Below, in pieces: positions 1-11,170 of a stretch of DNA of 64,000 nucleotides. The notes below the pieces were generated by a model, which was given only the letters and a program-made list of their open reading frames with translations, had not been told where the DNA came from and ran no database searches. The position numbers and the translations under genes were made by a program. The DNA is from an uncultured Chitinophaga sp. (GTDB lineage: Bacteria > Bacteroidota > Bacteroidia > Cytophagales > Cyclobacteriaceae): assembly GCA_902168205.1 (NCBI GenBank), contig CABHOK010000003.1:744001-808000 (forward strand), given 5' to 3'. Positions within the stretch are counted from its first letter, which is position 1; each line of letters begins with the position of its first letter.

Positions 1-301
1 TGCGAACTATACCATTACCGGATCGAGTCTTTGCCAATTCAACCGCTAACACCAAGGGTATGCTTCGCATATACATTTTGTTCCGTGTATAGATAGCAAG
101 GCGTGCAACAAACGCAGGGTCGTTCTTGGCGATCAATGCACGGATGCGATCTACGCGGTTATCGGTAGCCTCATAAAATTTATCGCTCAGCGAAGTGGTA
201 ACTACAGCACTATACAGCTCGGTACGTTCATCCAGTATATAGGCTTTTGTCTGGTGGTAGTTTACAGTTTCCTTTGCTTTACGAAATACATTGAATTTCA
301 T
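1..301 (-). CDS. TROVE-domain (Ro60/Rsr-like) RNA-binding protein, partial
   Basis: The reading frame starts at the ATG whose complement ends at 301 and leaves the window at base 1, so only about 100 N-terminal residues are visible. It begins MKFNVFRKAKETVNYH and contains LYSAVVTTSLSDKFYE, DRIRALIAKNDPAFVARLA and YMRSIPLVLAVELAKT. These match the start of the TROVE HEAT-like repeats of bacterial Ro60 orthologues, which bind Y RNAs and misfolded or damaged structured RNA. It is divergent from the WYL regulator at 400, so the two share a 98-bp control region. Its position beside tRNA-like arrays, two RNA ligases and an end-healing enzyme supports an RNA quality-control role. The C-terminal half, often a vWA-like domain, cannot be seen. 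Confidence 0.85.
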   Translation of the reverse strand, partial: MKFNVFRKAKETVNYHQTKAYILDERTELYSAVVTTSLSDKFYEATDNRVDRIRALIAKNDPAFVARLAIYTRNKMYMRSIPLVLAVELAKTRSGNGIVR

Positions 302-340
302 AACTCTTGCGTTTAATTGACGATTCAAAATTGAAAGGCA

Positions 341-363
341 ACTGCGCAGTCTTTTTGCGTAGT
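341..363. promoter_or_regulatory. Imperfect inverted repeat between the TROVE and WYL genes
   Basis: ACTGCGCA (341-348) and TGCGTAGT (356-363) form an inverted repeat (7 of 8 positions) with a 7-bp spacer, midway between the divergent TROVE and WYL genes. It is a plausible operator for the adjacent WYL regulator. No sequence shared with the array operators is seen here, and binding is inference. Confidence 0.35.
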
Positions 364-399
364 GGAAATTTTTTACTTCTTTTCTGAAAATATTTTCAA

Positions 400-2133
400 A
401 TGCCTGTTAATCGAAACGCCCTTATTCGTTACCGTACTATTGATAATTGTCTGAGAAACAGACACAGACGGTGGACGCTGGAAGATCTTGTAGAAGCTTG
501 TTCGGAAACACTATATGAATATGAAGGTATAGATAAAGGTGTAAGCAAGCGCACGGTGCAGATGGACATCCAGATGATGCGCAGCGACAAGTTAGGGTAT
601 AATGCTCCGATAATAGTAGAGGAGAAGAAATACTATAGCTATGAAGATTCGGAATATTCCATTACCAACATTCCGTTAACCGATCAGGACCTGGGCAAAC
701 TTACAGAGGTAGTAGAGATACTTCGCCAGTTTAAAGGCTTCAGTCATTTCCAGGAATTGAGCGGTATGGTGCAGCGTCTTGAGAATAAGATATATGCAGC
801 CAAAACAAACCAGGAGCCTGTTATTGATTTTGAAAAGAACGACAATCTGAAAGGACTGGAGCATATTGAGACACTATATCAGGCTATCATTAAAAAATGT
901 ACAGTAGAGTTGTGTTACCAGTCGTTTAAGGCTCGCAGTGCAAATACATTTCATTTTCATCCGTACTATTTAAAAGAGTATAGGAATCGCTGGTTTGTGA
1001 TCGGCATCAAGAAAAAGAATACGCCTATATTAACGCTGGCACTTGATCGTATTATCAGTATAAAAGATTGTGAGGTACGCTATGTACCCAAAGACTCTTT
1101 CAGCTTGCCGACATTCCTTCATGATGTGGTGGGGGTAAGCGTGAATCCGAATGGTCCGGTGGAGAAAGTTTTGATACAGGCTGATCATGAAACAGCTCCG
1201 TATATAATTACCAAGCCGCTGCATCATTCGCAACAAACTATAGAGAGTGGATCAGGTGGCGTAGTGATTTCATTGAACGTCCAGATTAATTTTGAGTTAG
1301 AACGTGAAATATTAGGGTTTGGCGACCGTGTAAAAGTACTAGCCCCGGAAAGATTGAAACGTAGAATAAAAACAATCCTGGAGCAGGCACTCAATCTTTA
1401 CCAGTTCGAATTCAATAATGCAGCGCTTCAAAGTACGGTAGAGAAATTAACACATAAGGGCTTTATGATTCTGCGTCATGTGTATGGTCGTAAGGAAGTA
1501 AATGCTATGAAGATGGAGATTGCGCGGTATTTAAAAGATAAGGGATTGGATGAAAATACACATGCCATCCGTAACCTGCTACAGGAAATTCCGATATTGA
1601 AGGAGACTATATTTAATAGTAACCTGTTGCAGGTACTGAAAAAAATAAATCCTGATCTGTTCCTGACAAAAGCGATATTCTTTGACAAGACACCGGATGC
1701 CAACTGGTATGTTACCTGGCATCAGGATATTGTGATTAATGTGGCGGAGAAAATAGAGCATGACGGTTTTTCGGGTTGGACAAAGAAATTTGGTGTACAT
1801 GGTGTTTGCCCTCCGGATGAAATTTTAAAAAATACATTTACCATACGTATTCATCTGGATGATACAGATGAGACAAACGGAGCTTTGAAAGTTATACCCG
1901 GTTCTCACAACAAGCGATTGTCTGATGAGGAGATCAATCTGATAGCGCAGAATAGTATACCGTATATATGTGAAGTTGAAGCTTGCGGTATTCAGATTAT
2001 GAAACCCTTGCTGCTACATGCATCATCAAAGGCTACGAGCCAGAAGCACAGACGGGTTATACACTTGGAATTTAACACGATGAAATTGCCGGGCGGCTTA
2101 GCGTGGGCTGAGAAGCGGGATATAGCTATTTGA
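400..2133 (+). CDS. WYL-domain transcriptional regulator fused to a PhyH-like 2OG-Fe(II) dioxygenase domain
   Basis: The 577-residue protein has a DeoR/WYL-regulator-like N-terminal helix-turn-helix region (about 1-80) and a WYL ligand-sensing domain (about 150-240, with FHFHPYYLKEYRNRWFVIG). A WCX-like region follows to about 340. Residues 345-577 resemble phytanoyl-CoA dioxygenases: WHQD gives the H441-x-D443 iron pair, then GSH at 501-503, the distal iron ligand is probably H540, and R551/R552 could hold 2-oxoglutarate. WYL proteins commonly regulate nucleic-acid defence and repair loci. A dioxygenase on the same chain is unusual and might sense metabolite or oxidative state, or modify RNA. 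It is divergent from the TROVE gene and its last 8 bp overlap the convergent higA-like gene. It is the best candidate regulator of the island. Confidence 0.85.
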   Translation: MPVNRNALIRYRTIDNCLRNRHRRWTLEDLVEACSETLYEYEGIDKGVSKRTVQMDIQMMRSDKLGYNAPIIVEEKKYYSYEDSEYSITNIPLTDQDLGKLTEVVEILRQFKGFSHFQELSGMVQRLENKIYAAKTNQEPVIDFEKNDNLKGLEHIETLYQAIIKKCTVELCYQSFKARSANTFHFHPYYLKEYRNRWFVIGIKKKNTPILTLALDRIISIKDCEVRYVPKDSFSLPTFLHDVVGVSVNPNGPVEKVLIQADHETAPYIITKPLHHSQQTIESGSGGVVISLNVQINFELEREILGFGDRVKVLAPERLKRRIKTILEQALNLYQFEFNNAALQSTVEKLTHKGFMILRHVYGRKEVNAMKMEIARYLKDKGLDENTHAIRNLLQEIPILKETIFNSNLLQVLKKINPDLFLTKAIFFDKTPDANWYVTWHQDIVINVAEKIEHDGFSGWTKKFGVHGVCPPDEILKNTFTIRIHLDDTDETNGALKVIPGSHNKRLSDEEINLIAQNSIPYICEVEACGIQIMKPLLLHASSKATSQKHRRVIHLEFNTMKLPGGLAWAEKRDIAI

Positions 2134-2434
2134 TAGTCTTAACAGTTTTAGGGATCAGGCTTTTTATTTTAATACCGCCTGACTCTTTATAACCCTTTGC
2201 CAGATCGAAGTGAAGTTGCGCCTGAAGCCAGAATTCTGGTGTGGTGTCAAACGCTTTGCTGAGCTTAAAGGCCATCTCTACTGAAATAGCATACTCACCT
2301 TTTAATATAGCGTATAGATTTTTACGAGCAATGCCCAGCGCTTCCGCTACATCTGTGATGGCCAGTCGATGAGGTTTGATGTATAACTCTTCAAGGATCT
2401 GACCGGGGTGAGCGGGACTGTGCATTCGTAACAT
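2126..2434 (-). CDS. higA: HigA-family antitoxin (XRE helix-turn-helix)
   Basis: The 102-residue protein has the HigA/VapI layout: HPGQILEELYIKP at the N-terminus, an XRE helix-turn-helix in the middle (ITDVAEALGIARKNLYAIL) and TTPEFWLQAQLHFDL after it. It should neutralise the HigB-like toxin encoded 5 bp upstream and repress the pair. The toxin-first gene order is typical of higBA. The gene overlaps the end of the WYL gene by 8 bp on the other strand. It is another candidate to bind the palindromes in the 2.72-2.78 kb control region. Confidence 0.88.
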   Translation of the reverse strand: MLRMHSPAHPGQILEELYIKPHRLAITDVAEALGIARKNLYAILKGEYAISVEMAFKLSKAFDTTPEFWLQAQLHFDLAKGYKESGGIKIKSLIPKTVKTIK

Positions 2435-2439
2435 ACTTA

Positions 2440-2712
2440 TTATTTGGGTTCCTGCTTATAATTTAATTGGCGTATCTCTCCGTCAACGAACCGGAATGTA
2501 AATATACCCGCACCGTGAACGGTAAGGCGATAGCTATCGCTGTCTTCTTCAAGAACACTCACGTGGGCGATCGAAAGATCCCGAATATCTTGAGCAGCGT
2601 GGATCACCGAAAGCCATAACAATAAAAAGCCTTTCAACTCCCGTGATATGCCGGAAGCTGTTCCTTTTTCAAAGAGACTTTTTAAAACGTTATGACGAAT
2701 TGAAACAATCAT
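2440..2712 (-). CDS. higB: HigB-like RelE-superfamily mRNA interferase toxin
   Basis: The 90-residue protein begins MIVSIRHNVLKSLFEKGT, has the central block DLSIAHVSVLEEDSDSYRLTVHGAG and ends FTFRFVDGEIRQLNYKQ. This fits the RelE/HigB fold of ribosome-dependent mRNA endonucleases, although the C-terminal catalytic residues look degenerate and the family call is less certain than for HigA. It is the first gene of a two-gene operon with the antitoxin. Its promoter faces away from tRNA-like array A, so toxin expression and the array share one intergenic control region. Confidence 0.7.
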   Translation of the reverse strand: MIVSIRHNVLKSLFEKGTASGISRELKGFLLLWLSVIHAAQDIRDLSIAHVSVLEEDSDSYRLTVHGAGIFTFRFVDGEIRQLNYKQEPK

Positions 2713-2720
2713 GTAAGTGT

Positions 2721-2749
2721 CAACGTTTTTACGTTGGGCGACAAAAATA
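2721..2749 (-). promoter_or_regulatory. higBA promoter and probable autorepression operator
   Basis: On the minus strand TATTTTTG (complement of 2742-2749) matches the Bacteroidetes -7 consensus TAnnTTTG. Just downstream, CAACGT-TTTT-ACGTTG (2721-2736) is a perfect 6-bp inverted repeat lying over the expected transcription start and 8 bp before the toxin start codon. That position suits autorepression by HigA or HigBA. Confidence 0.6.
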
Positions 2750-2758
2750 AAAAAATAT

Positions 2759-2800
2759 TGTTACCCGTGGGGTGACAATTTAAAAGTAATTATATATTTG
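2759..2800 (+). promoter_or_regulatory. Array A operator and promoter
   Basis: TGTTACC-CGTGG-GGTGACA (2759-2777) is an inverted repeat with one mismatch between half-sites, placed over the -33 region. TATATTTG (2793-2800) is a perfect -7 element followed by CATCAT. The same arrangement recurs upstream of array B and, with small changes, at 16914. Repression or activation from this site is inference. Confidence 0.75.
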
Positions 2801-2805
2801 CATCA

Positions 2806-2985
2806 TAATACAGAATAATAAGATGAAACCCGGTATTAACATATTCAATCTAAACGCTTCGCATAGCATATGCTTTGTGCCGAAGAATTATTGGATTTTC
2901 CCGGGGAGGGTTGACTATATATAGTATTAGTGATAGATATAGTATTAACAGAAACCCCGGGAAATAGAATATCCCGGGGTTTTTT
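2806..2985 (+). ncRNA. Leader RNA of array A with terminator/antiterminator
   Basis: The transcript expected from the TATATTTG promoter first folds as ATTCAAT (2842-2848) with ATTGGAT (2890-2896), enclosing CTTCG (2857-2861) with CGAAG (2881-2885). The segment 2897-2906 (TTTCCCGGGG) is fully complementary to 2955-2964 (CCCCGGGAAA). Alternatively 2952-2962 pairs with 2972-2982 as an 11-bp stem followed by a T-run, an intrinsic terminator. The two helices exclude each other. It could be an attenuator controlling readthrough into array A, or the end of a separate small RNA. Because CCCGGG is self-complementary, many pairings are possible. Confidence 0.6.
2952..2985 (+). terminator. Intrinsic terminator at the end of leader A
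   Basis: AAACCCCGGGA (2952-2962) pairs with TCCCGGGGTTT (2972-2982) around a 9-nt loop and is followed by further T residues. It lies only 20 bp before the first tRNA-like gene, so array A is expressed only by readthrough or from a promoter I cannot see. Confidence 0.75.
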
Positions 2986-3001
2986 GTTTTGTTTTTTTTA
3001 C

Positions 3002-3074
3002 GGACATATAGCTCAGTTGGTAGAGCAAGGCGCTGTTAACGCCTGGGTCGGTGGATCGTGCCCATCTATGTCCG
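3002..3074 (+). tRNA. tRNA-Asn(GTT)-like RNA with aberrant T-loop
   Basis: This is a complete cloverleaf. The acceptor GGACATA (3002-3008) pairs perfectly with TATGTCC (3067-3073). The D-arm is GCTC-AGTTGGTA-GAGC, and the anticodon arm AGGCG-CTGTTAA-CGCCT has anticodon GTT (Asn). A 5-nt variable region and the T-stem GGTGG:CCATC follow. The T-loop is ATCGTGC where canonical tRNAs have TTCRANY, so T54 and A58 are replaced. G3074 is the discriminator, followed by CA. The body looks selected for, but the T-loop would weaken the elbow and the usual modifications. It may be a working tRNA, but a mimic is more likely given its neighbours. Confidence 0.8.
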
Positions 3075-3079
3075 CAGAT

Positions 3080-3140
3080 ATCCGGCAGTTGAGGTATATA
3101 TCTCAAAAGTTTATGCATGCGCGTAAATGATCTGCCGGAT
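3080..3140 (+). ncRNA. Structured RNA element, three-way junction
   Basis: ATCCGGCAG (3080-3088) pairs perfectly with CTGCCGGAT (3132-3140). Inside lie two hairpins: TTGAG:CTCAA (3089-3093 with 3102-3106, 8-nt loop) and TTTATGC:GCGTAAA (3110-3116 with 3121-3127, 4-nt loop, one G-T pair). There is no T-arm, so it is not a cloverleaf. It could be a processing element, a degenerate tRNA mimic, or a Y-RNA-like fold for the TROVE protein. Confidence 0.5.
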
Positions 3141-3151
3141 TGCGTAATCAA

Positions 3152-3231
3152 CACCCGCATGTTCCAGGGAGGCGGACAAGTATATACACGTATATACTTT
3201 GTCGGGGCAGGTTCAATTCCAGGCCGGGTGA
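3152..3231 (+). ncRNA. tRNA-like RNA with long central hairpin
   Basis: CACCCG (3152-3157) pairs with CGGGTG (3225-3230). Before the 3' acceptor strand there is a T-arm-like element with canonical loop TTCAATT (3212-3218), but two of the five T-stem pairs are mismatched. The middle is a long hairpin, GACAA plus GTATATA (3175-3186) against TATATAC plus TTGTC (3191-3203) with one bulged T, replacing the D and anticodon arms. No anticodon can be assigned. Confidence 0.5.
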
Positions 3232-3256
3232 GTTTTTAAAGCTAGTAATTTTTTTA

Positions 3257-3333
3257 CGAGGTGTATCGGCTCATGCTTATACCATGTCGAAACCGTAGTT
3301 GGTAGCACGCAGGTTCAACTCCTGCCGCCTCGA
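3257..3333 (+). ncRNA. tRNA-like RNA with canonical 3' half and deviant 5' half
   Basis: The acceptor CGAGGTG (3257-3263) pairs fully with CGCCTCG (3326-3332, one G-T). The T-arm GCAGG-TTCAACT-CCTGC (3309-3325) is canonical. A3333 is followed by CA. Between them, CATG-CTTATAC-CATG (3272-3286) forms a 4-bp hairpin with a 7-nt loop, and a second weak ACC:GGT hairpin follows. Neither resembles a normal D or anticodon arm in the expected order. AGTTGGTAGC, a typical D-loop string, lies out of place at 3297-3306. It looks like a rearranged tRNA. Confidence 0.6.
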
Positions 3334-3387
3334 CAAAATATGAAGTATATATACGTGATAATTGCATGATTGTGGAATCTAATAAGG

Positions 3388-3414
3388 TGGCCGGAGGTAA
3401 AGATATTCCGGCCA
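3388..3414 (+). promoter_or_regulatory. Hairpin competing with the Lys-like acceptor stem
   Basis: TGGCCGG (3388-3394) duplicates the 3' acceptor strand of the following Lys-like RNA (3471-3477). It can therefore pair with that RNA's 5' acceptor strand (3408-3414), forming a strong hairpin instead of the cloverleaf. This could control processing or folding of the Lys-like RNA, or be a duplication scar. Confidence 0.45.
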
Positions 3415-3478
3415 AAGCATTAAGGTGATGCTTCCCACTTTTAATGGGAAGAACGCGGATCAATACTGCGTGGCCGGA
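3408..3478 (+). tRNA. tRNA-Lys(TTT)-like RNA with aberrant T-loop
   Basis: All four arms are present. The acceptor CCGGCCA (3408-3414) pairs perfectly with TGGCCGG (3471-3477). The D-arm GCAT-TAAGGTG-ATGC has a short loop. The anticodon arm TCCCA-CTTTTAA-TGGGA (3433-3449) carries the standard Lys loop with anticodon TTT, and the T-arm is CGCGG-ATCAATA-CTGCG. The T-loop starts with A instead of T, as in the Asn-like RNA. A3478 is followed by CA, and the Phe-like RNA begins 4 nt later. tRNA-Lys(UUU) is the classical substrate of the anticodon nuclease PrrC, which makes this a plausible decoy. Confidence 0.75.
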
Positions 3479-3482
3479 CAAC

Positions 3483-3555
3483 GGAGATTAAGCTAACTAA
3501 GTAGAAGCGTGGTTCTGAAAAAGCTAAGGACCTGGAGCGTTACCAGGAATCTCCA
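3483..3555 (+). tRNA. tRNA-Phe(GAA)-like RNA with aberrant D- and T-loops
   Basis: The acceptor GGAGATT (3483-3489) pairs perfectly with AATCTCC (3548-3554). A 3-bp D-stem GCT:AGC encloses a loop lacking the conserved GG. The anticodon arm TGGTT-CTGAAAA-AGCTA (3510-3526, two G-T pairs) has anticodon GAA. The T-arm CCTGG-AGCGTTA-CCAGG has a perfect stem, but its loop lacks the TTCRA motif. A3555 is followed by CA. Because D-loop G18/G19 and T-loop T55/C56 are both lost, the tertiary elbow cannot form normally and use in translation is doubtful. Confidence 0.72.
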
Positions 3556-3562
3556 CAGGGTA

Positions 3563-3607
3563 TGCAGATCAGAGAGGAGAGTATATCTCTCCGAATCGTG
3601 TGCTGCA
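3563..3607 (+). ncRNA. Stem-loop element between Phe-like RNA and last array A element
   Basis: TGCAG (3563-3567) pairs with CTGCA (3603-3607), and GGAGAG-TATAT-CTCTCC (3576-3592) forms an internal hairpin. No anticodon or T-arm is recognisable. It may be a spacer hairpin or another degenerate mimic. Confidence 0.4.
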
Positions 3608-3613
3608 AGGCCG

Positions 3614-3702
3614 GTGGCGTGATAGCATAGTCGCAGATAAATGCGTTTTGTTGTGGTATACATCGCAATGAAAAGATCGAGGTTAAAGCCCTCCGCGCCA
3701 CA
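3614..3702 (+). ncRNA. tRNA-like RNA closing array A; end may act as terminator
   Basis: GTGGCGTG (3614-3621) pairs with CGCGCCAC (3694-3701, one G-T). A D-arm-like GCAT:ATGC (3624-3627 with 3641-3644), a long central arm built on TTGTG:CGCAA around GTATACAT, and a T-arm-like GAGG-TTAAAGC-CCTC (3679-3693) follow. If the end follows the pattern of the other elements, A3700 is the discriminator before CA. The closing stem is followed by AATTTTTTA, so it can also serve as the intrinsic terminator of array A. No anticodon can be assigned with confidence. Confidence 0.5.
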
Positions 3703-3735
3703 ATTTTTTATATAGTATAAAAATAAATATATAAA

Positions 3736-3779
3736 TGTTACCCGATAGGTAACAAAAGTAAAGTCAAATCGTATATTTG
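3736..3779 (+). promoter_or_regulatory. Array B operator and promoter
   Basis: TGTTACC-CGATA-GGTAACA (3736-3754) is a perfect 7-bp inverted repeat, and TATATTTG (3772-3779) is a perfect -7 element followed by CATCAT, as at array A. Spacing between the start of the operator and the end of the -7 element differs by only 2 bp between the two copies. This points to one regulator controlling both arrays. Confidence 0.78.
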
Positions 3780-3784
3780 CATCA

Positions 3785-3935
3785 TGAATCAGATAAATAC
3801 ATATAGCTCATATCACCCGCATCACCCCGAAGCAAAATCGGGTGGGAGGACAGACTATATAAGTCTGATTGATTCATAGATGGTGTAACTATACATAAGG
3901 AATCATAAAGCCTCCCGAACACGGAGGCTTTTTTT
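3785..3935 (+). ncRNA. Leader RNA of array B with terminator
   Basis: TGAATCA (3785-3791) pairs with TGATTCA (3870-3876). This encloses a CACCCCGA/TCGGGTG hairpin (one bulged C) and CAGACT-ATATA-AGTCTG (3851-3867). GGGAGG (3844-3849) can pair with CCTCCC (3911-3916), which is part of the terminator 5' arm (AAAGCCTCC 3907-3915 with GGAGGCTTT 3923-3931, then a T-run). The layout parallels leader A: structured 5' domain, purine-rich GGGAGG, a GACTATAT motif, then a terminator. It may be an attenuator or a separate small RNA. Confidence 0.6.
3907..3935 (+). terminator. Intrinsic terminator at the end of leader B
   Basis: AAAGCCTCC (3907-3915) pairs with GGAGGCTTT (3923-3931) around a 7-nt loop, followed by a T-run to 3935. 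It lies about 95 bp before the tRNA-Tyr gene, so array B also needs readthrough or a hidden promoter. Confidence 0.75.
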
Positions 3936-3954
3936 GTTTGAATAAATATAGGGT

Positions 3955-4011
3955 AATGGAGGAGTCTGGTCATCCTCGCCTGCATTGGAAGCATCCCGAT
4001 AGTTATCGGGA
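3955..4011 (+). ncRNA. Possible tRNA-like remnant interrupted by a palindrome
   Basis: GAGGA-loop-TCCTC (3959-3977) resembles a D-arm, and CCTGC-ATTGGAA-GCATC (3979-3995) resembles an anticodon arm with the potential anticodon TGG (Pro). Only three of its stem pairs form. The expected T-arm position is taken by the palindrome at 3994-4011, and no matching acceptor strands are found. It could be a decayed or insertion-interrupted array member. Confidence 0.3.
3994..4011. repeat. REP-like palindrome TCCCGATAGTTATCGGGA
   Basis: A perfect 7-8 bp inverted repeat closely related to the one at 4129-4146 (shared pattern TCCCGAYARTTRTCGGGA). Both copies sit inside array B elements. Such short GC-ended palindromes are typical of dispersed intergenic repeats in Bacteroidota. 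Confidence 0.6.
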
Positions 4012-4028
4012 CTACAATTTAGTTGAAT

Positions 4029-4111
4029 CGGAGAGTAGACCGTAAGTGGAAGCGGGCCGCTCTGTAAAAGCGGTGTCATAGACCTTGGATGTTCGATTCA
4101 TCCCTCTCCGA
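4029..4111 (+). tRNA. tRNA-Tyr(GTA)
   Basis: The acceptor CGGAGAG (4029-4035) pairs perfectly with CTCTCCG (4104-4110), and A4111 is the discriminator. The anticodon arm CCGCT-CTGTAAA-AGCGG (4057-4073) has the typical Tyr loop. A 13-nt variable region with GTC:GAC fits a class II tRNA. The T-arm GGATG-TTCGATT-CATCC is canonical. The D-arm GACC:GGGC contains one mismatch. It is the most canonical member of either array and could be a functional tRNA. Note that its first pair is C-G, whereas bacterial tRNA-Tyr normally starts with G. Confidence 0.75.
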
Positions 4112-4121
4112 CTTTGTATAT

Positions 4122-4170
4122 GGTGGTGTCCCGACAATTGTCGGGATGAGTTCGAGCCTCATGCATCACC
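4122..4170 (+). ncRNA. Minimal tRNA-like RNA (acceptor, one hairpin, T-arm)
   Basis: GGTGGTG (4122-4128) pairs with CATCACC (4164-4170, one G-T). The T-arm ATGAG-TTCGAGC-CTCAT (4146-4162) is perfect and canonical, followed by one unpaired G. Only the palindrome TCCCGACAATTGTCGGGA (4129-4146) lies between, in place of the D and anticodon arms, and its last base is shared with the T-stem. The result would be a mini-tRNA of 49 nt without an anticodon. It could be a real mini-tRNA mimic or a tRNA gene whose centre was replaced by a repeat. Confidence 0.5.
4129..4146. repeat. REP-like palindrome TCCCGACAATTGTCGGGA
   Basis: A perfect inverted repeat, a sequence variant of the palindrome at 3994-4011, occupying the centre of the minimal tRNA-like RNA. 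Confidence 0.6.
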
Positions 4171-4255
4171 CGTGATGTTTATTGTTGTTGACTATATTTT
4201 TTAATGAGCGTACATAATCCATTTCCGGATGTTTCGTTGTGTATTAATCAACAGT

Positions 4256-4293
4256 AAAGGCTTCCCATAACCACAGGAAGCCTTTCGCTTTTT
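4256..4293 (+). terminator. Terminator of array B
   Basis: AAAGGCTTCC (4256-4265) pairs perfectly with GGAAGCCTTT (4276-4285) around a 10-nt loop, followed by CGCTTTTT. It separates array B from the convergent HD-Pnk gene and could act in both directions. The tail before it repeats GTTGACTATAT (4187-4197), the same 11-mer as in leader A (2910-2920). Confidence 0.75.
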
Positions 4294-4310
4294 AAAGTAT
4301 ATATCACTAA

Positions 4311-5423
4311 TCAGTGATCCGTAACACAATACTCCACATCGTGCGCTTCAAATATACAGGGTACCTCCAGTTTAGGGAGCATACGAAATATAGCGGCTTG
4401 TGGAACCGCATGTTCACGATTGCTATTTTGTGCCAGCCATGTTTTGAACGGAACTTCAATGTATACCAGTTTGACGTGTGCTTTGTAGGTTACAAACAGA
4501 TCGATCCATTGCGATCGCATTTGCCGGGTAATATTCGTTGCGTTCCATACAAAAGGTTGTCGCTTTCGAAGAAATTCTTTGGCTTGTTCTTTCGCGAGTT
4601 GTACAGCCCAACCGGTGGCAGAAGTGTCATCGGGTTTGAGCTTGTATTCTCTTCGAATCGCATCGAGGCTTACCATAGGCCAATCGTTGTAATGCTTTTT
4701 TATATACCGATCCTTGCCCATACCAGGTAAACCTGAGAGCATAACAACATTTGTTTTCAGATCGTCAAATGGAATATAGTCGGGATGTGCATCGTCTTTG
4801 TGAAAGTATGTGAATTGTGCCAGCGGTGTAGCAAAAGATTTTCGGGAATGCCAACATGCTTGTTCTTCACAATACACATCAAAAAAATTGATACGATCCA
4901 GCAGTTCTTGCTGATCCTGACAAATTCGTCCCGATACATCAGCACGTGCAAGAGCTGATAATAATTTCAGATCGACACGCAACGATGCTTCGAGTAAGGC
5001 TTTCACCGGGTTTGTTTTTTCCATCAGCCAGAGCGGTAGTCCGTGGTAACGCACCAGGGCTGCAATGCGTTCGCGTTGCTGAAATGGTATACCGAGTTCG
5101 TATAGTAGCCTTCGCGTTGTAAATTCACCTTTACGGGCATGACCATGCGAGGTGATGCGGCCGTTGTCTTCCACAACCGTTGTAGAACGTTTCTCAACAT
5201 CGTGAAGCAATGCTGCTGTCCAAAGTATCTCCTGTTCCTCTCGGTTCAATCTTTGAAAAGATGTTGCATCCGTTAACGCCTTCAATACCATTTGCGTATG
5301 TATAGCAACATCGCCTTCAGCATGATGAATAGAATCCTGCGGTACATTTCGCATGTCGACAACCCAATCGAATCGCTCCTCCAGGTGTTCCCAATCTTTA
5401 TTTATCGATAATGACCAGTTCAT
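4311..5423 (-). CDS. HD-Pnk: HD phosphoesterase fused to 5'-OH polynucleotide kinase
   Basis: The 370-residue protein heals broken RNA ends. The N-terminal HD domain (H74-D75 in LLHDVEKR, further histidines at 93, 95 and 127) should remove 2',3'-cyclic phosphates. The C-terminal P-loop kinase (GLPGMGKD at 231-238, SLDAIRRE with likely base D254, VWNATN at 292-297, YIEVP near 321) should phosphorylate 5'-OH ends. This order matches HD-Pnk enzymes characterised from Runella slithyformis. It lies 16 bp downstream of an RNA ligase gene, so healing and sealing are co-expressed. The gene converges on tRNA-like array B. Substrate choice is inferred. Confidence 0.9.
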   Translation of the reverse strand: MNWSLSINKDWEHLEERFDWVVDMRNVPQDSIHHAEGDVAIHTQMVLKALTDATSFQRLNREEQEILWTAALLHDVEKRSTTVVEDNGRITSHGHARKGEFTTRRLLYELGIPFQQRERIAALVRYHGLPLWLMEKTNPVKALLEASLRVDLKLLSALARADVSGRICQDQQELLDRINFFDVYCEEQACWHSRKSFATPLAQFTYFHKDDAHPDYIPFDDLKTNVVMLSGLPGMGKDRYIKKHYNDWPMVSLDAIRREYKLKPDDTSATGWAVQLAKEQAKEFLRKRQPFVWNATNITRQMRSQWIDLFVTYKAHVKLVYIEVPFKTWLAQNSNREHAVPQAAIFRMLPKLEVPCIFEAHDVEYCVTDH

Positions 5424-5439
5424 ATTTTTATAGTTAAAA

Positions 5440-6135
5440 TTATACGTGTGGGTATTCCCACAACAACTTCGCTCTTCGCCAGTGGCGTGTCCAATGCTCG
5501 TCTGTCTTTACATGTCCTTTGCGGACATATTTAAAAACGTTATGCATGAAATCATTCACGTCATATTCTTCTGTATTCCTGCTTACGATACCTTCACACG
5601 TGCAGGGCGCTTCGCTTTGTATATCCTGCGAATTCAGTATACTGCTTTGACGCGTAAGCGCCAGTACGTTTTCTCGAAACGTTGCTTCGGTGGTAGGCTG
5701 AACAATCTTTAATTCAGGTACCGTGGGGAAATCAAACATGGCTGCATAGAATTTTACTTCTTCCCAGCTCAACCACACATCGTGCATGCGAACAGCGAAA
5801 ACATAGTAGTGATGTTCCAGTTTCCGGTATTCGATCGAATGTATAGCGTACAGATTCTCACCAAAGATTTCAATGTCACCGAGATCATTCCTGATCAACT
5901 CCCATCGCTGGCGGATTTCTTTTGTCCACGCAGATACCGTTGGCGCGGCATGCGACCGTGCAAAGACACCATAGCGACTGAGACAGTTGTTCTCACCATC
6001 CAGTTTTTCGGTGTGCACAATAGTTTTCAATTTATTTACATCCGACCAATAGTCATGATGAATGCGATCGTCACTGGTTGTACCCGGTGAAAAGGGATAG
6101 TGATAGGTTCGTCCATATTTTCTGGAGATACTCAT
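5440..6135 (-). CDS. ATP-dependent RNA ligase (Rnl family)
   Basis: The 231-residue protein has the nucleotidyltransferase motifs of RNA ligases. Motif I is EKLDGEN with adenylylated lysine K44, a motif III region lies around 110-116 (YYVFAVR), motif IV is EGIVSR (181-186) and motif V is FKYVRK (201-206). The N-terminal RKYGRTYHYPFSPGTTSDDR block is typical of short bacterial Rnl proteins. It seals 3'-OH and 5'-phosphate ends such as those produced by the HD-Pnk encoded 16 bp downstream. There is no large C-terminal domain, so specificity may depend on a partner. A possible promoter lies about 220 bp upstream. Confidence 0.9.
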   Translation of the reverse strand: MSISRKYGRTYHYPFSPGTTSDDRIHHDYWSDVNKLKTIVHTEKLDGENNCLSRYGVFARSHAAPTVSAWTKEIRQRWELIRNDLGDIEIFGENLYAIHSIEYRKLEHHYYVFAVRMHDVWLSWEEVKFYAAMFDFPTVPELKIVQPTTEATFRENVLALTRQSSILNSQDIQSEAPCTCEGIVSRNTEEYDVNDFMHNVFKYVRKGHVKTDEHWTRHWRRAKLLWEYPHV

Positions 6136-6169
6136 AGTCTTGTAATTTGAATTTGGAAATAAACAGAAT

Positions 6170-6297
6170 CGTCCGGACGTGATGAATTATATATAGCGCA
6201 TCGCTATAGGTATAGCACGATCAAGACTGATTGAATACGGTAATACCATTCTTTCCCGCGGGAACACGGGATGTTGTGATGGATGGTATAGTATTAC
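6170..6297. other. Inverted-repeat-rich leader upstream of the RNA ligase gene
   Basis: This stretch holds CGTCCGGACG (6170-6179), ATAGCGCATCGCTAT (about 6193-6207) and TTCCCGCGGGAA (6253-6264). ATACCAT (6243-6249) can pair with ATGGTAT (6283-6289), or alternatively GTAATAC (6240-6246) with GTATTAC (6291-6297). On the minus strand this would be the 5' leader of the ligase transcript. It could be regulatory or an unrecognised small RNA. Confidence 0.35.
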
Positions 6298-6420: not shown

Positions 6421-7599
6421 TTATTCCTGCACAATAGGGAAGTACCATGGTGTTCCGAAAAAACCTTTCATTTCGGCTATAGCGATCTCATCACCTATAG
6501 ACGTCAGGTTATACTCTTCTGAATTGATGGTTACCTTTTCAATCTTTTCAGCATCGTGCCATGATGTAACAATGATATAGTACGTAGTACTTCGACCTTT
6601 GCTTATTTCTTTTTGAATAATGCTAGTCTTATAATATTGAGGAGAAGAACTATCGAACAGGCAGTTTGATACTGTATACGCGCCAAAGCTGTAGGAGTAC
6701 GCGAGAATCATTAAGGTAAAGATGACAAAGTAATCCTGGGCACTTTTGAACGTTGGAAGTTTGGTGGCAATCAGAATGAGTATAATTAACAGGACAGCAA
6801 ATGTGCCTGTGGTGATCCAGAGTTGGCTAAATTCCAATATGTTGTAATCGAACAATCCCCGAAGAGTAAGGCTCAGCCCTGCCATAATAAAACCCGTTGC
6901 GACCGATGGGTACGCGTTATTCTTTCGTTCATCCACACGAAGCAGCCCGCGGTATAGGTATAGCAGGATAATGATAACAACCGGGTAGGCTATACCAATG
7001 ATTAGTACGATCGTATAAAATATAGGGTAGAATGTCATCCAGAAAAACAATACAAAGCCGACAGCGTTGGTGATCCTGGCTATCCGTCTTGCCTCAGCCA
7101 GCCGATGCTCTCTTGCTTGTTGTGAAAGTCCAAGGGCATCATCGTTCAGAATACTTTTCTCCTGGTCGGCAAATTCCTGCTTATTCAGGTCCGTGAATGT
7201 TGAAGCTAGCCATGCTGTGATCTGGTCTGCTTTTTCGAGGTATGTACTTGTTTTAATTTTTTTGTGCTGTGCATTTTTAGGAATAATATATATACCGTTG
7301 CGTTCAATCTTGTAGCCAAGAACATCTTCAAACTTCAGGGTTCGTGAGGCGATCGGATTTATACTGGTGACGTGATCGTTGCCAATAATAAACCTGCTCT
7401 GTATGGTATCGATAAGACCATACGCAAACAGGCACGTCATAACCAGTGCGCCCATGGCCAGCAGGGGTGCTATAAACGGACTGACGCCTTCGGCAGTAAA
7501 GATAAAGAAAATGGTAGATAGAAATGATACCATTAAGATAGGAGCGAAGATATATATAAATATTCTCCAGCCTTTCGCGATTCGGTAAGTGCCTTGCAT
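6421..7599 (-). CDS. Integral membrane protein with PH-like domain
   Basis: This 392-residue protein is not recognised as a named family. Two membrane segments lie near the N-terminus (about 10-65). They are followed by a soluble stretch resembling bacterial PH domains (SRFIIGNDHVTSINPIASRT, residues about 68-130) and then about six more hydrophobic segments between about 175 and 315. The hydrophilic C-terminus ends FFGTPWYFPIVQE. It is the third gene of a same-strand row, 96 bp after the AAA/M41 protease gene and a short GC hairpin. Association with RNA repair is by position only. Confidence 0.55.
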   Translation of the reverse strand: MQGTYRIAKGWRIFIYIFAPILMVSFLSTIFFIFTAEGVSPFIAPLLAMGALVMTCLFAYGLIDTIQSRFIIGNDHVTSINPIASRTLKFEDVLGYKIERNGIYIIPKNAQHKKIKTSTYLEKADQITAWLASTFTDLNKQEFADQEKSILNDDALGLSQQAREHRLAEARRIARITNAVGFVLFFWMTFYPIFYTIVLIIGIAYPVVIIILLYLYRGLLRVDERKNNAYPSVATGFIMAGLSLTLRGLFDYNILEFSQLWITTGTFAVLLIILILIATKLPTFKSAQDYFVIFTLMILAYSYSFGAYTVSNCLFDSSSPQYYKTSIIQKEISKGRSTTYYIIVTSWHDAEKIEKVTINSEEYNLTSIGDEIAIAEMKGFFGTPWYFPIVQE

Positions 7600-7695
7600 G
7601 ATTGGATAGATCGTCTTTCAAAACTAGTAAATAGCGTGCATTTCTGTATAGAAGAAGTGAAGGCAAGGAAGTTCTATACTTTCTTGCCTTCTGCT

Positions 7696-9756
7696 TTAAC
7701 TAAGTTCAAGCTCGACAGCTTCCGAAGCTACTTTAACAGCTTCCTGTATTTGCAGCTCTATAACCTCATGGAAATTATAGTACTGGTCTTTGCCGATAAA
7801 GCCCTCTGTGCGAACCCACTCTTCGGTGCTATAGCGTTTAATAAAATCGCCGATCATGGTTTCTTCCATGCGTGCATGCGTAGTGAGGTAAGAGCCCATT
7901 TTGAGCAAAAGAAGTTTATTCCTCAACAGAATACTTTCAGCCTCCTGCATGCAGGATTTGATGACACGGATTGCCTCCTGTGAATATATTTCAGTATGAT
8001 AAAAGCTGTCCTCATTGCTGGAGTTTGCTGCAACTACGTGGATCGGATCGCTTCCCATAGCGTACTGTCTCACGGCACGGTTTGCCAGTTCGCTGGCATT
8101 TTCAATATCATGTCGTACACCAGACGAAGTATGGTCATCACCAAAGATCAGCTTCTCTGCCGCGTATCCTCCAAGTGTGAGGATTATATCTTTCCGGATA
8201 GAATCCTTCGTCATCGGACCATTAGGAAAATTGATCATGCAAAATCCCTCACCGTCATCAGACGCAGTCTTTGATACTGCAACAGAAGGAAGTATACGCA
8301 ACGTAAGTGCTGCAAGAATAGCATGTCCGGCTTCATGGATGCCGGTGTGAGCTTGCGTACTCTTGCTGGTGGTCTTGCGAAGATTGTCAATCTTCAGGTT
8401 TACTTCATCCAGCAAAGAATATATATACTTGCCGTTCGCATCACAGATTTCAAACAGAAAATGTTCCTCGGCATAGTACCAGTGGACCGTGGCGGTTGTT
8501 ATGTTCTTATCTATGATCTCCATAACAAGTTTACCAATACGGGATTCGATCAAATTCTTGATCGTAGTAAATACGGGGCGTGTTCCTTGTGAAGGGAAAA
8601 CACCTTCTGCATATACTATATCAATTATGGAATCGTCAAAATCCATGCTCCATCCAAAAGAAACTTTTACGAATTTGCCGATGCGCTCCAACTCTCGTGC
8701 GATCAATTGGCGGAAGTGTATATTCTTGAAAGATTTATAGATAACATGGTTGTTACCCAATCGCGCAATTTGTTCGCTGCGAAATCTTTTACGAAGTGCA
8801 CTTTTAATCGTTGCAATGGTAATATGCGTTGTTGCTTCGTAAAATTCATCAGCACTTATATCCGGATTCATACTATGACTCATCGGATATGCTTCGTCCA
8901 GATTACCAAGCACGAAAATAAGCGCTTGCGATAAATCGAGTTCCTTCGTGGCCGGGCGAGTCTTCATAGCTTCCAGTATAAATTTCTTCAGTTCCGGAAG
9001 AGACAATGTTTTGATATGTTCCCGTATATAGTCTTTGGAGAAATCATCGTGCTCGAACAGGTCGTAAACACCTCCTATGAAATCTTTTGATAAAAAATAC
9101 TTTTTACTCAGGGGTTCGTTGTAGCGGTCATGATGATCAAAGAAGAATGGTTCAAACAGTTTCAGAAAAACTTCTTCTTCTGCAACAACCTCTCCATTCT
9201 CTAAAATAACTCCACTTTTGATGGCTTTGTCCAATCTCTTGATGCAGCTGTCGGCCCTGAAAAGCATATAGGTACTATTGCTGGGTATATATTCAATCTT
9301 CCCGGAATCCAGTAAATCCCAGATCACACGAAGTTTGTCTTTGCCCAATTCACGTTGGCCGTTGTCTAACGTTCTGGCGAATTGAAATTCATCGAGACAA
9401 ATAACAGCAGGTTTCTGGTGAAAGAACTCCAGGTCGTCTGTGAATATATTTTTAATCCATGTTGCTGAATCGGATTCAAACTCACCCATATCAATATGAG
9501 TATATAGTTTACGATGTTCCAGTAATTCAACAATGCATTGTATCAATGCCGTTTTTCCAGAGCCGGTCAATCCCCACAAGTTTACAACGGTAGGCCTGAG
9601 CTGTGCTTCCGGAAAAAGATACCACGGCATCATCAGCGATATTACTTCATCAATAACACTGTCCAGTCCGATGAAGCGTTCTTTCAACTGACTCGTAATA
9701 ATCTCCAGATTTTTCTTCTTCTCTTTTAGTTCCTTATGTGTAATGATTGTATCCAT
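7696..9756 (-). CDS. Soluble AAA+ ATPase fused to FtsH-type M41 metallopeptidase
   Basis: The N-terminal half (about 20-400) is a Clp/HslU-like AAA+ domain with Walker A GLTGSGKT (62-69) and Walker B VICLDEF. Residues about 465-650 match peptidase M41: HEAGH (H474, E475, H478) and D550 in SGVRHDIENASELA, the usual third zinc ligand of FtsH. Unlike FtsH there is no transmembrane segment, and the ATPase is of a different AAA+ type. It should unfold and degrade proteins in the cytosol. The start codon lies 4 bp after the rtcB stop, so the genes are co-transcribed and probably coupled. The target, perhaps a toxin or a damaged repair factor, is unknown. Confidence 0.85.
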   Translation of the reverse strand: MDTIITHKELKEKKKNLEIITSQLKERFIGLDSVIDEVISLMMPWYLFPEAQLRPTVVNLWGLTGSGKTALIQCIVELLEHRKLYTHIDMGEFESDSATWIKNIFTDDLEFFHQKPAVICLDEFQFARTLDNGQRELGKDKLRVIWDLLDSGKIEYIPSNSTYMLFRADSCIKRLDKAIKSGVILENGEVVAEEEVFLKLFEPFFFDHHDRYNEPLSKKYFLSKDFIGGVYDLFEHDDFSKDYIREHIKTLSLPELKKFILEAMKTRPATKELDLSQALIFVLGNLDEAYPMSHSMNPDISADEFYEATTHITIATIKSALRKRFRSEQIARLGNNHVIYKSFKNIHFRQLIARELERIGKFVKVSFGWSMDFDDSIIDIVYAEGVFPSQGTRPVFTTIKNLIESRIGKLVMEIIDKNITTATVHWYYAEEHFLFEICDANGKYIYSLLDEVNLKIDNLRKTTSKSTQAHTGIHEAGHAILAALTLRILPSVAVSKTASDDGEGFCMINFPNGPMTKDSIRKDIILTLGGYAAEKLIFGDDHTSSGVRHDIENASELANRAVRQYAMGSDPIHVVAANSSNEDSFYHTEIYSQEAIRVIKSCMQEAESILLRNKLLLLKMGSYLTTHARMEETMIGDFIKRYSTEEWVRTEGFIGKDQYYNFHEVIELQIQEAVKVASEAVELELS

Positions 9757-9760
9757 ACGT

Positions 9761-11170
9761 TTAATCTTTAGCCATCCGAACTATCTTCGGATGAAATTTA
9801 CCTTCAACATCCACCAGGGTATGTTGACTTTTTATGACCAACTCGATGTCTTTATAGGCACCGGGTGATTCTTCTGTGCTGCCTCCCATTAAGGTTACCT
9901 TCTCCGCTTGCAGCATTTTTTTCATGCTGCTCATGGTAGTAGTTTCCCGCGCTTTTTGTCGCGACATCTTTCGGCCGGCACCGTGTGAAGCTGAGTTTAA
10001 TGATGCTTCGTTACCGAGACCCCGCACAATAAATCCCGGAGCCACCATGCTGCCCGGTATAATTCCATATATACCTGGAGCCGCCGGCGTTGCGCCTTTA
10101 CGGTGTACGATATACTCGTTACCATCGGCCAGTGTTTCGCGCCAGGCAAAGTTGTGATGGTTTTCTACCGTGCTCAGAACTTTTGCACCCAGTGCTTTGC
10201 ACAGGTTACGGTGTATACGTTCGTGACAAGCCTTAGCATATTCACCGGCAAGATTCATCGATAGCCAATACTCTTCGCCTTCGGCACTGTCCAATGTAAG
10301 CCAGGCAAGTTGTTTTGCCTCGCGCGGAAGCTTGCAACGATTCATTGCTATAGCGGTATAATGCTGTGCTATATTTGCTCCGAGACTTCTGGAACCAGAG
10401 TGCGATAGTATAGCCATATAGTTACCCGGTGGCAATCCGAGTGTGTTGGTTTCATATAGTGCTACGGTACCAAATTCCACAAAGTGATTTCCGGAGCCCG
10501 AACTTCCCAGCTGCTTAACGGCTTTACCATGCAGGCGTTTCAGAAGATCGGTCAATTGAAAGTCTGCGTGATCAAGTATAGCATGCTCTTGTACTTGCTC
10601 CAGTCCGCCATCATTACCGAAGTGTGTTTCCCGCTCAAGCACTTTCTTTAACTCGTGCGTACGGTGTTCGGTATAGCTGGCCGGCAGATCAAGAATGCTG
10701 AGTGCCATGCGACAGCCAATGTCCATACCTACTCCATAAGGTATAATAGCGTTGTGCGTTGCCAGTACACCGCCAATCGGCAGGCCATAGCCATGGTGTG
10801 CATCCGGCATCAGTGCGCCTTTTACCGCTATAGGAAGTCGCATGGCAAGTTCCATTTGCTGAATGGCATTGGTGTCGATGTGCTTGCTGCCAAACATATC
10901 AAAGTGCCGCGGTTCATCTTCCAGCAAATAGGTCTCGCTCACGGGTGTCTCATCGGGAGCGTTTATAAGTTTGTGTGCCAATATGCTGAGGGTTGCATGC
11001 TGCGTGTAGCGATGCGGTTGCTCCAGTATATCAGTCAGTAATGTTAGTTTTTCCTCGTTGGGTGTATGCTTGAAGTGCCGGTTCATTAAGTTTAAGGCGA
11101 GGCTTCGTGCTACATCCGTAGGGAAAGAAATGACCTGAAGGTCTTTTATTGTTAATTTTTGTTTGCCCAT
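9761..11170 (-). CDS. rtcB: RNA ligase RtcB
   Basis: RtcB joins RNA 2',3'-cyclic phosphate or 3'-phosphate ends directly to 5'-OH ends, using GTP and Mn2+. Visible signatures are PDAHHGYGLPIGGV, GMDIGCRM (metal-binding Cys), GSGNHFVEF and SHGAGRKMSR containing the guanylylated histidine. I chose the start at 11170 (MGKQKLTIKDLQ, about 469 residues). An upstream in-frame ATG would add 30 residues of non-family sequence. It leads a probable operon with the AAA/M41 protease and the membrane protein. Together with HD-Pnk/Rnl it gives this locus two independent sealing chemistries for nuclease-cut RNA. Confidence 0.93.
   Translation of the reverse strand: MGKQKLTIKDLQVISFPTDVARSLALNLMNRHFKHTPNEEKLTLLTDILEQPHRYTQHATLSILAHKLINAPDETPVSETYLLEDEPRHFDMFGSKHIDTNAIQQMELAMRLPIAVKGALMPDAHHGYGLPIGGVLATHNAIIPYGVGMDIGCRMALSILDLPASYTEHRTHELKKVLERETHFGNDGGLEQVQEHAILDHADFQLTDLLKRLHGKAVKQLGSSGSGNHFVEFGTVALYETNTLGLPPGNYMAILSHSGSRSLGANIAQHYTAIAMNRCKLPREAKQLAWLTLDSAEGEEYWLSMNLAGEYAKACHERIHRNLCKALGAKVLSTVENHHNFAWRETLADGNEYIVHRKGATPAAPGIYGIIPGSMVAPGFIVRGLGNEASLNSASHGAGRKMSRQKARETTTMSSMKKMLQAEKVTLMGGSTEESPGAYKDIELVIKSQHTLVDVEGKFHPKIVRMAKD

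What the first reader, a model, noticed from the sequence alone, without database searches (positions are those of the whole stretch)
1..11170. RNA-repair island built around two arrays of tRNA-like RNAs
Within 11 kb there are a TROVE/Ro60-like protein, a WYL regulator, HigBA, HD-Pnk, an Rnl ligase, an AAA/M41 protease and RtcB. A 1.5-kb protein-free core encodes at least six tRNA-like RNAs. Enzyme families are recognised from known motifs. The combination with tandem tRNA mimics under duplicated control modules is what I find novel. Working hypothesis: anticodon nucleases or damage trigger expression of decoy tRNAs, and healing/sealing enzymes restore cut tRNAs.
Basis: partly seen in the sequence, partly recalled or inferred. 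Interest (0 to 1): 0.95.

Follow-up and report, generated by a model that had tools for sequence, protein, structure and literature searches.

The report
Self-sensing spare-tRNA arrays beside RNA-repair genes
Next to a set of RNA-repair enzymes, this bacterium seems to carry clusters of extra transfer-RNA genes that switch on when the ribosome runs short of those same transfer RNAs, which would let it outlast attacks that destroy them.

Summary
The RNA-repair island is real and extends about 9 kb upstream of the window (two RlaP, Thg1, Pnk, a second RtcB, Band-7, complete TROVE). Its core (2.75-4.3 kb) holds ten tRNA or tRNA-like elements; ordinary Asn, Lys, Phe, Tyr, Pro and His tRNAs lie elsewhere in the genome. 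The array recurs in other genera; anticodon stems covary under fixed anticodons.

The "duplicated control modules" look like ribosome-mediated transcription attenuators: promoter, 21-45-codon leader peptide, terminator 20-38 nt past its stop, competing antiterminator in the leader tail (25 leaders). Leader codons match the tRNAs downstream: LLQLLALLL precedes four tRNA-Leu genes, FFFCC precedes Phe and Cys. Shuffling leaders among arrays reaches the observed match in 0 of 200,000 (12 classes) and 1 of 200,000 using scan-found leaders only. Taken singly, 21 of 36 leaders pass P<0.05.

Best reading: a spare-tRNA set that senses loss of particular tRNAs and supplies the same specificities while enzymes mend the rest. 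A promoter palindrome goes with HigBA (17 of 17 leaders; 0 of 17 where HigBA was not found). An array beside TROVE resembles Y RNAs. Replacement or decoy is undecided. All evidence is computational.

The parts
2..328 (-). N-terminal part of the TROVE/Ro60 protein (gene continues outside the window; complete as L003:14775-16328)
   Evidence: Pfam TROVE E=8.9e-30 on the complete gene
345..359 (.). Palindromic site CGCAAAAAGACTGCG between TROVE and WYL genes, candidate WYL-regulator site; same site before RtcB#1
   Evidence: only 2 exact matches in the 7.3-Mb genome, both in this island; binding inferred
400..2133 (+). WYL-WCX regulator fused to a PhyH (phytanoyl-CoA dioxygenase-like) domain
   Evidence: relatives
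2126..2434 (-). HigA antitoxin (HTH), candidate repressor of the array promoters
   Evidence: TIGR02607 E=5.7e-23; co-occurrence with palindrome
2440..2712 (-). HigB-like toxin
   Evidence: Pfam HigB-like 26.3 bits, just under cut-off 27
2759..2777 (.). Palindrome TGTTACC-N5-GGTGACA before promoter 1
2793..2800 (+). TATATTTG, Bacteroidota-type -7 element (type recalled), promoter 1
   Evidence: sequence; scan
2823..2924 (+). Leader peptide 1, MKPGINIFNLNASHSICFVPKNYWIFPGRVDYI
   Evidence: composition-blind scan; 14 of 32 residues are N/I/K/F, 7.6 expected
2953..2981 (+). Terminator 1; its 5' arm pairs with the leader tail (antiterminator -20.5 against terminator -17.8 kcal/mol)
   Evidence: P=0.001
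3002..3075 (+). Extra tRNA-Asn(GUU), T-loop ATCGTGC like one CAU tRNA of the genome
3080..3138 (+). Element A2: closing stem with two hairpins, no anticodon arm recognised
   Evidence: fold z=-3.84 (3080-3147); alignment of six
3152..3230 (+). Element A3: tRNA-like, acceptor and T arm, no anticodon recognised
   Evidence: found in seven other genomes by pattern; fold z=-1.73
3257..3334 (+). Element A4: tRNA-like with anticodon-type loop CTTATAC (UAU, taken as Ile)
   Evidence: model R1 hits
3408..3479 (+). Extra tRNA-Lys(UUU) with covarying anticodon stem
3483..3556 (+). Extra tRNA-Phe(GAA)
   Evidence: model R2 reaches other families
3614..3702 (+). Element A7: tRNA-like, anticodon arm replaced by a variable hairpin
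   Evidence: fold z=-2.74; alignment of six
3736..3754 (.). Palindrome TGTTACC-N5-GGTAACA before promoter 2
3784..3879 (+). Leader peptide 2, MNQINTYSSYHPHHPEAKSGGRTDYISLIDS
   Evidence: scan; 8 of 30 residues are P/Y/H, 3.4 expected
3908..3930 (+). Terminator 2 with antiterminator partner in leader 2
   Evidence: P=0.041
3950..4012 (+). Remnant of tRNA-Pro(UGG): 3' half replaced by a small palindrome; complete in G074
4029..4112 (+). Extra tRNA-Tyr(GUA) with long variable arm
4122..4171 (+). Shortened tRNA-His-like element (acceptor, inserted palindrome, T arm); complete tRNA-His(GUG) in G074 and G132
   Evidence: fold z=-3.89 (4118-4172)
4256..4285 (+). Terminator-like hairpin closing the array (seen by eye)
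   Evidence: sequence
4311..5423 (-). HD-Pnk end-healing enzyme
5440..6135 (-). ATP-grasp RNA ligase (Rnl)
   Evidence: Pfam RNA_ligase E=1.6e-29
6421..7599 (-). 392-aa protein, hydrophobic stretches by eye, no family
7696..9756 (-). AAA ATPase with FtsH-type M41 peptidase domain
9761..11260 (-). RtcB RNA ligase (second copy of the island)
   Evidence: Pfam RtcB E=1.4e-79

Best explanation
The core is an inducible spare-tRNA operon. Transcription starts at Bacteroidota-type promoters and normally stops at an intrinsic terminator, because a ribosome that finishes the short leader peptide sits on the leader's tail (segment 2). If a tRNA that the leader needs is missing, for example cut by an anticodon nuclease, the ribosome stalls upstream. 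Segment 2 is then free to pair with the 5' arm of the terminator, RNA polymerase reads on, and an array of divergent tRNAs of the same specificities is made. These stand in for the destroyed ones, and may also absorb nuclease, while HD-Pnk, Rnl, RtcB, Pnk, Thg1 and RlaP mend the damage. A second control acts on the promoters: probably HigA (palindrome GTTACC-N5-GGTAAC) in genomes with HigBA next door, and in some relatives a WYL-type site. Shown from sequence: elements, conservation, covariation, leader position, antiterminator potential, leader/array match, operator co-occurrence. Inferred: stalling as the trigger, tRNA cleavage as the cause, use of the spares in translation, HigA and WYL binding.
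For: Scans blind to peptide composition find 31 of the 36 leaders used; 5 were found by eye. 36 leaders in 12 hand-assigned homology classes: 0 of 200,000 shuffles of leaders among arrays reach the observed match; ARAGORN-only sets 3 and 1 of 200,000, without the Leu case 5; scan-found leaders only 1 of 200,000 (10 classes), or 28 and 11 of 200,000 with ARAGORN-only sets (8 classes). Single cases: MSTSYTFFLLQLLALLLWKAREPYV before four tRNA-Leu; MILIQNIFFFCCSPDF.. before Phe and Cys. In 25 of 25 leaders tested the best partner of the terminator's 5' arm ends 0-27 nt before the stop codon and the terminator starts 20-38 nt after it; 15 of 25 have P<=0.05; combined P 3.6e-16, or 1.5e-8 for 12 representatives. 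Canonical tRNA-Lys is 96-100% identical across 8 genomes while the array tRNA-Lys rewrites its anticodon stem with compensating changes under a fixed anticodon. N73 matches the canonical isotype in 95 of 120 array tRNAs against 52.6 on shuffling. Palindrome in 17 of 17 leaders with HigBA near, 0 of 17 where it was not found. In another family such an array sits directly before RlaP-Thg1-Hen1-Pnkp.
Against: No expression data. Taken singly, 15 of 36 leaders do not reach P<0.05; G163_L1, G182_L1, G321 and the G370/G339/G349 type show no enrichment at all. Sets and classes were delimited by hand. Residues V, W and D of leader 1 occur also in genomes without those tRNAs, and G486 keeps CC in its leader though its Cys tRNA is broken. 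Segment 1:2 pairing beats shuffles in only 3 of 16 leaders; the antiterminator of G454_L2 does not (P=0.61). A2, A3 and A7, and the Pro and His remnants of this window, cannot be ordinary tRNAs. Asn has T or C at 73 in four loci, and 50 of 110 comparable anticodon loops differ from those of the window genome's canonical tRNAs. 10 of 27 array genomes show no recognised repair enzyme in the fetched stretch.
Confidence: 0.7

Rival explanations
1. Decoys: the same attenuator-controlled arrays exist, but the RNAs mainly soak up anticodon nucleases or compete for them and are little used in translation.
For: Anticodons kept while bodies diverge; some elements lack an anticodon or D arm; [quoted passage not shown]
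Against: Discriminator bases largely kept; long variable arm kept in Tyr (by eye); many-membered tRNA sets in G160, G454 and G479; a decoy without an anticodon is useless against an anticodon nuclease.
Confidence: 0.3
2. The leaders sense amino-acid starvation, and the arrays are ordinary tRNA supplements made under starvation.
For: The anatomy is that of amino-acid-operon attenuators (comparison recalled); stalling does not tell an uncharged tRNA from a missing one.
Against: More tRNA does not cure starvation; one leader mixes many amino acids (G521, G479); 17 of 27 array genomes have an RNA-repair enzyme in the fetched stretch.
Confidence: 0.12
3. All the RNAs are Y-RNA-like partners of the TROVE protein rather than tRNA stand-ins.
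For: The array beside TROVE has YrlA-like matches (L003:13811-13923, E=4.8e-8, 43.5 bits against cut-off 69).
Against: G132, G136, G015 and G127 have arrays but no TROVE match in the fetched stretch (stretches of 12-20 kb); array A gives no Y RNA match.
Confidence: 0.08
4. Decaying mobile or phage-derived tRNA cluster without function.
For: Small palindromes inserted in several elements; Pro and His shortened in this window.
Against: Compensating changes across genera; leaders and terminators kept; a pattern-based scan that reaches close relatives only found no WYL-PhyH relative in viral contigs.
Confidence: 0.04

Closest known systems
Ribosome-mediated attenuation of amino-acid operons (trp, his, leu leaders; recalled)
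   Same: Leader peptide with control codons, terminator, competing antiterminator in the leader tail
   Different: Output is tRNAs of the sensed specificities, not biosynthetic enzymes; one leader covers many amino acids
rsr-yrlBA-rtcBA RNA-repair operon regulated by tRNA fragments (PMC7790460; summary and passages seen)
   Same: TROVE-type protein, tRNA-like Y RNAs, RtcB; response to damaged tRNA is the proposed theme
   Different: No RtcR-CARF among the island proteins scanned; adds attenuator-controlled arrays of tRNAs, HD-Pnk/Rnl, Thg1, RlaP and HigBA
Phage tRNA clusters thought to evade anticodon nucleases (PMC10264068; abstract and passages seen)
   Same: Extra tRNAs standing in for host tRNAs cut by nucleases
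   Different: Cellular, and apparently inducible by the missing tRNA itself. In the window the Asn, Lys, Phe and Tyr loops equal the canonical ones and the change is in stem and body; over all arrays 50 of 110 loops differ, so loop changes are not excluded
Pnkp-Hen1 and HD-Pnk RNA repair (recalled; Pfam matches)
   Same: End-healing and sealing genes present
   Different: Here coupled to a tRNA supply

Membership tests
Ribosome-mediated transcription attenuator | Short leader ORF enriched in control codons | tested here: met
   as a set; singly 21 of 36 leaders at P<0.05, both window leaders among them
Ribosome-mediated transcription attenuator | Intrinsic terminator shortly after the leader stop | tested here: met
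   25 of 25 at 20-38 nt; presence of a terminator was a criterion of the scans
Ribosome-mediated transcription attenuator | Antiterminator competing with the terminator, partner in leader tail | tested here: met
   15 of 25 at P<=0.05, 24 of 25 at P<=0.15
Ribosome-mediated transcription attenuator | Protector 1:2 hairpin | tested here: inconclusive
   P<=0.05 in 3 of 16 leaders
Ribosome-mediated transcription attenuator | Read-through on stalling at control codons | not testable with these tools
   needs reporters
tRNA gene | Cloverleaf with anticodon loop | tested here: met
   Asn, Lys, Phe, Tyr in window met; A2, A3, A7 and the Pro and His remnants not met
tRNA gene | Discriminator base N73 of the isotype | tested here: met
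   95 of 120 array tRNAs in 21 loci, some of them close relatives
tRNA gene | Aminoacylated and used by ribosomes | not testable with these tools
   none
Y RNA (YrlA) | Rfam RF02553 at cut-off | tested here: not met
   array B best 43.5 bits against 69; array A no match at E<=1
Y RNA (YrlA) | Bound by TROVE/Rsr | not testable with these tools
   none
RtcR-controlled rtcBA operon | RtcR with CARF and sigma-54 domains beside rtcB | tested here: not met
   not among the 19 island and flanking proteins scanned; rest of genome not searched
HD-Pnk | HD phosphoesterase plus P-loop kinase domains | tested here: met
   PF01966 and PF13671

The most novel reading that the evidence does not exclude
A general prokaryotic circuit in which tRNA genes are controlled by leader-peptide attenuators that read the codons of the very tRNAs encoded downstream. 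The cell thereby detects which tRNAs have been destroyed and transcribes body-swapped, nuclease-evading substitutes of just those specificities, with TA-derived HigA and WYL regulators as a second key and the repair enzymes' own operon under a similar attenuator (Gln/His-containing leader before Pnk-Thg1).
Probability: 0.5. Interest if true: 0.95.

Novelty: new variant of a known kind. Interest (0 to 1): 0.88.

Why it matters
Anticodon nucleases are widespread weapons in phage defence, toxin-antitoxin systems and bacteriocins (recalled; see also the passages). How a cell notices which tRNA is gone, and survives, is open. A circuit that measures tRNA loss by translation itself and answers with substitutes of the same specificity would be a direct solution. 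The leader peptides would also give a readable list of the tRNAs each lineage expects to lose. In the listings of eight full-text searches of an open-licence library I saw no description of tRNA genes under leader-peptide attenuation; only the listed rows were looked at, and the library lacks key papers, notably the 2016 survey of RNA-repair systems that I asked for.

Tried and rejected
Thg1 as supplier of G-1 to the array tRNA-His: dropped, since ARAGORN boundaries put G at -1 and C at 73 in the seven array tRNA-His listed. Classical 1:2 protector hairpin as a universal part: mostly not supported. Viral origin: no relative of the WYL-PhyH protein found in viral contigs by a scan that reaches close relatives only. 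Array A as Y RNA: no Rfam match. A CM of A4 used as a census: matches from 38 bits down were taken as ordinary tRNAs without checking and not counted. Gain of V, W and D in the G160 leader 1 as an argument: dropped, as the window's leader 1 has them too. PDB relatives: for HD-Pnk four chains deposited as Metallophosphoesterase over residues 225-341 (I recall them as a Pnkp kinase domain), none for the ligase. WYL-type sites before six leaders: random 160-nt windows from island-rich loci give as good a site in 63 of 2000, and four of the six leaders are one class, so this is weak.

Rows left out of the leader test: G427 (same as G412), G454 leader 1 and G479 leader 2 (seen by eye, long), leaders with no tRNA array downstream (before Pnk-Thg1), and alternative or nested ORFs that one search lists at the same terminators. 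Found by eye and not by the scans: G074_L2, G197_L2, G284, G521_L2, G479_L1. One search tested 25 leaders, one of them (own_L3) without tRNAs downstream; its 12 representatives are not the same as the 12 classes. G419, a weak hit, was not fetched.

Full report
What is there. The window lies at C3:744001-808000 of a 7.3-Mb genome, close to a MAG named Flammeovirgaceae UBA5867 (HD-Pnk 88% identical). The island continues upstream (L003): complete TROVE, a second tRNA/Y-RNA-like array, a Band-7 protein, a second RtcB, a small P-loop kinase, Thg1 and two RlaP nucleotidyltransferases. The WYL regulator carries a C-terminal PhyH domain.

The array. Between 2.75 and 4.31 kb I find no protein gene apart from two leader peptides; one search lists only short mechanical ORFs (66-75 aa). 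Ten elements can be told apart: Asn-GUU, A2, A3, A4 (UAU), Lys-UUU, Phe-GAA, A7, a Pro-UGG remnant, Tyr-GUA and a shortened His. ARAGORN sees three, Rfam adds Phe, and the rest follow from comparison with relatives. ARAGORN calls a canonical Asn, Lys, Phe, Tyr, His, Pro and Cys tRNA elsewhere in the same genome, so those array copies are extra; a canonical UAU tRNA was not seen. Relatives carry further members: Gln, Ser, Leu, Ile, Met, Val, Trp, Asp, Arg, Cys, Glu.

Conservation and covariation. Canonical tRNA-Lys is 100% identical in G074, G197, G213 and G136 and 96-97% in G015, G132 and G313. The array tRNA-Lys differs in four of five anticodon-stem pairs by changes on both sides, with anticodon and pairing intact. 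The Phe element behaves the same way; neighbouring loop positions vary in both. Covariance models find A4 strongly (E<=5e-20) in 17 of 390 family genomes and the Phe element in 9 of 390 genomes of the order, own genome included, reaching three other families.

Attenuators. Scans for promoter-like element, short ORF and terminator before tRNAs, blind to peptide composition, find the two leaders of the window and most of their relatives (31 of the 36 used). In 25 of 25 leaders tested the best partner of the terminator's 5' arm lies in the tail of the leader, ending 0-27 nt before the stop codon, and the terminator starts 20-38 nt after the stop. Against shuffled leaders P is at most 0.05 in 15 and at most 0.15 in 24 of 25; combined 3.6e-16, and 1.5e-8 for 12 representatives. 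The conventional 1:2 hairpin is significant in only 3 of 16 leaders.

Leaders match arrays. Examples: FFLLQLLALLL before Leu-CAG, UAG, CAA, UAA (G412); NYSFSDWGFFW before Lys, Asn, Trp, Asp, Phe, Tyr, Ser (G521); IFFFCC before Phe and Cys (G533); CYQHICYQ before Cys, a Tyr remnant and A4 (G156); LIQNQHCEKLQKN before Gln, Ile, Asn, Lys (G284); SSYRQPQP before Pro, Tyr, Gln, His, Arg, Ser, Ser (G132), where G160, which has three Leu tRNAs as well, reads HLHSSYRQLQPS. Over 12 homology classes no shuffle of 200,000 reaches the observed match, with either the first or the last listed leader of each class. With sets from ARAGORN alone the counts are 3 and 1 of 200,000; without the Leu leader 5; without Leu, G533 and G156 104. 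With scan-found leaders only: 1 of 200,000 with hand sets, 28 and 11 with ARAGORN sets. Singly, 21 of 36 leaders reach P<0.05; 15 do not, among them G132_L1, G015_L1, G160_L1, G163_L1, G182_L1, G313, G321, G454_L2 and the G370 type. In the window the match is moderate: 14 of 32 (7.6 expected) and 8 of 30 (3.4 expected).

Second control. Within 90 nt upstream of the leader ATG a palindrome GTTACC-N5-GGTAAC with at most one mismatch occurs in 17 of 17 leaders with HigA or HigB within 3.5 kb and in 0 of 17 where none was found in the fetched stretch; random 90-nt windows give it in 10 of 3000. The UBA5867 contig ends too early to judge HigBA. The palindrome is not confined to the arrays: the genome has two more perfect copies elsewhere. 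Six leaders without HigBA have a WYL-type site with 0-3 mismatches, four of them one class; random windows give that in 63 of 2000. In this genome the exact WYL-type site occurs only before TROVE/WYL and before RtcB#1. Binding is inferred.

Replacement or decoy. Of 122 array tRNAs called by ARAGORN in 21 loci, 120 have a named isotype. Their discriminator base agrees with the window genome's canonical isotype in 95, against 52.6 on shuffling (highest of 2000 shuffles: 69); 7 of the 25 misses are Ile, for which the list held no canonical tRNA. The anticodon loop equals the canonical one in 60 of 110 comparable cases and differs in 50. This favours chargeable substitutes. A2, A3, A7 and the shortened elements cannot be, so decoy or structural roles remain open.

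Association with repair. Counting one array per genome over 27 genomes with leader and array, an RNA-repair enzyme lies in the fetched stretch (6-20 kb) in 17: own, UBA5867, G074, G197, G132, G015, G136, G127, G313, G321, G284, G163, G182, G156, G454, G486, G533. In G136, G163 and G182 an ATP-grasp ligase lies inside the array; in G454 RlaP-Thg1-Hen1-Pnkp follow it directly. In 10 I do not see one (G370, G339, G349, G341, G160, G177, G412, G427, G521, G479); the first four still have the WYL-PhyH and AAA-M41 genes. A leader of its own precedes the Pnk-Thg1 operon (MIQKQLHIETQALAGEHHACEWGYMLP; relatives in G213 and G305), sharing QLHI; in this genome its antiterminator is not significant (P=0.11).

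Literature. [quoted passage not shown] PMC10264068 (abstract and passages) argues that phage tRNAs evade anticodon nucleases. PMC7824862 (passages) reviews phage tRNAs and repair enzymes. The listings of eight searches showed no tRNA genes under leader-peptide attenuation. The 2016 survey of RNA-repair systems was not held, so parts of the gene neighbourhood may be described there.

Noticed in passing
window 3989-4012, 4129-4146; also L004, L080, L118, L125, L217: Small palindromes such as TCCCGATAGNTATCGGGA and TCCGCCAGCTGGCGGA are inserted in or replace arms of array tRNAs, like small mobile repeats.
   Followed up: partly
L003:13760-14730 (upstream of the window): Second array between TROVE and Band-7: Cys-GCA and Lys-like tRNAs, YrlA-like matches below cut-off, and a motif GCCGTAGA..TTACTTCGGC repeated about four times (by eye).
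   Followed up: partly
L134:11930-12137, L138:11322-11535, L124 about 6040-6250: A similar RNA of about 190-210 nt with tRNA-like ends and a large insertion, in islands with Band-7 or TROVE (by eye).
   Followed up: no
window 400-2133: WYL regulator fused to a PhyH dioxygenase-like domain, with near full-length relatives in tens of genomes; what the oxygenase does in such a regulator is unknown.
   Followed up: partly
L117 about 3033-2686; similar ORFs by eye in L118, L215, L219: A DUF4180 protein (Pfam for the L117 copy) sits inside the array between its two halves.
   Followed up: partly
L005-L016, L018: The Rnl plus HD-Pnk pair occurs in Xenorhabdus species; ARAGORN finds no tRNA in those loci.
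   Followed up: no
L003 about 10770, L115:8073, L121 about 1976: A leader with Gln/His codons and a terminator precedes the Pnk-Thg1 repair operon itself.
   Followed up: partly
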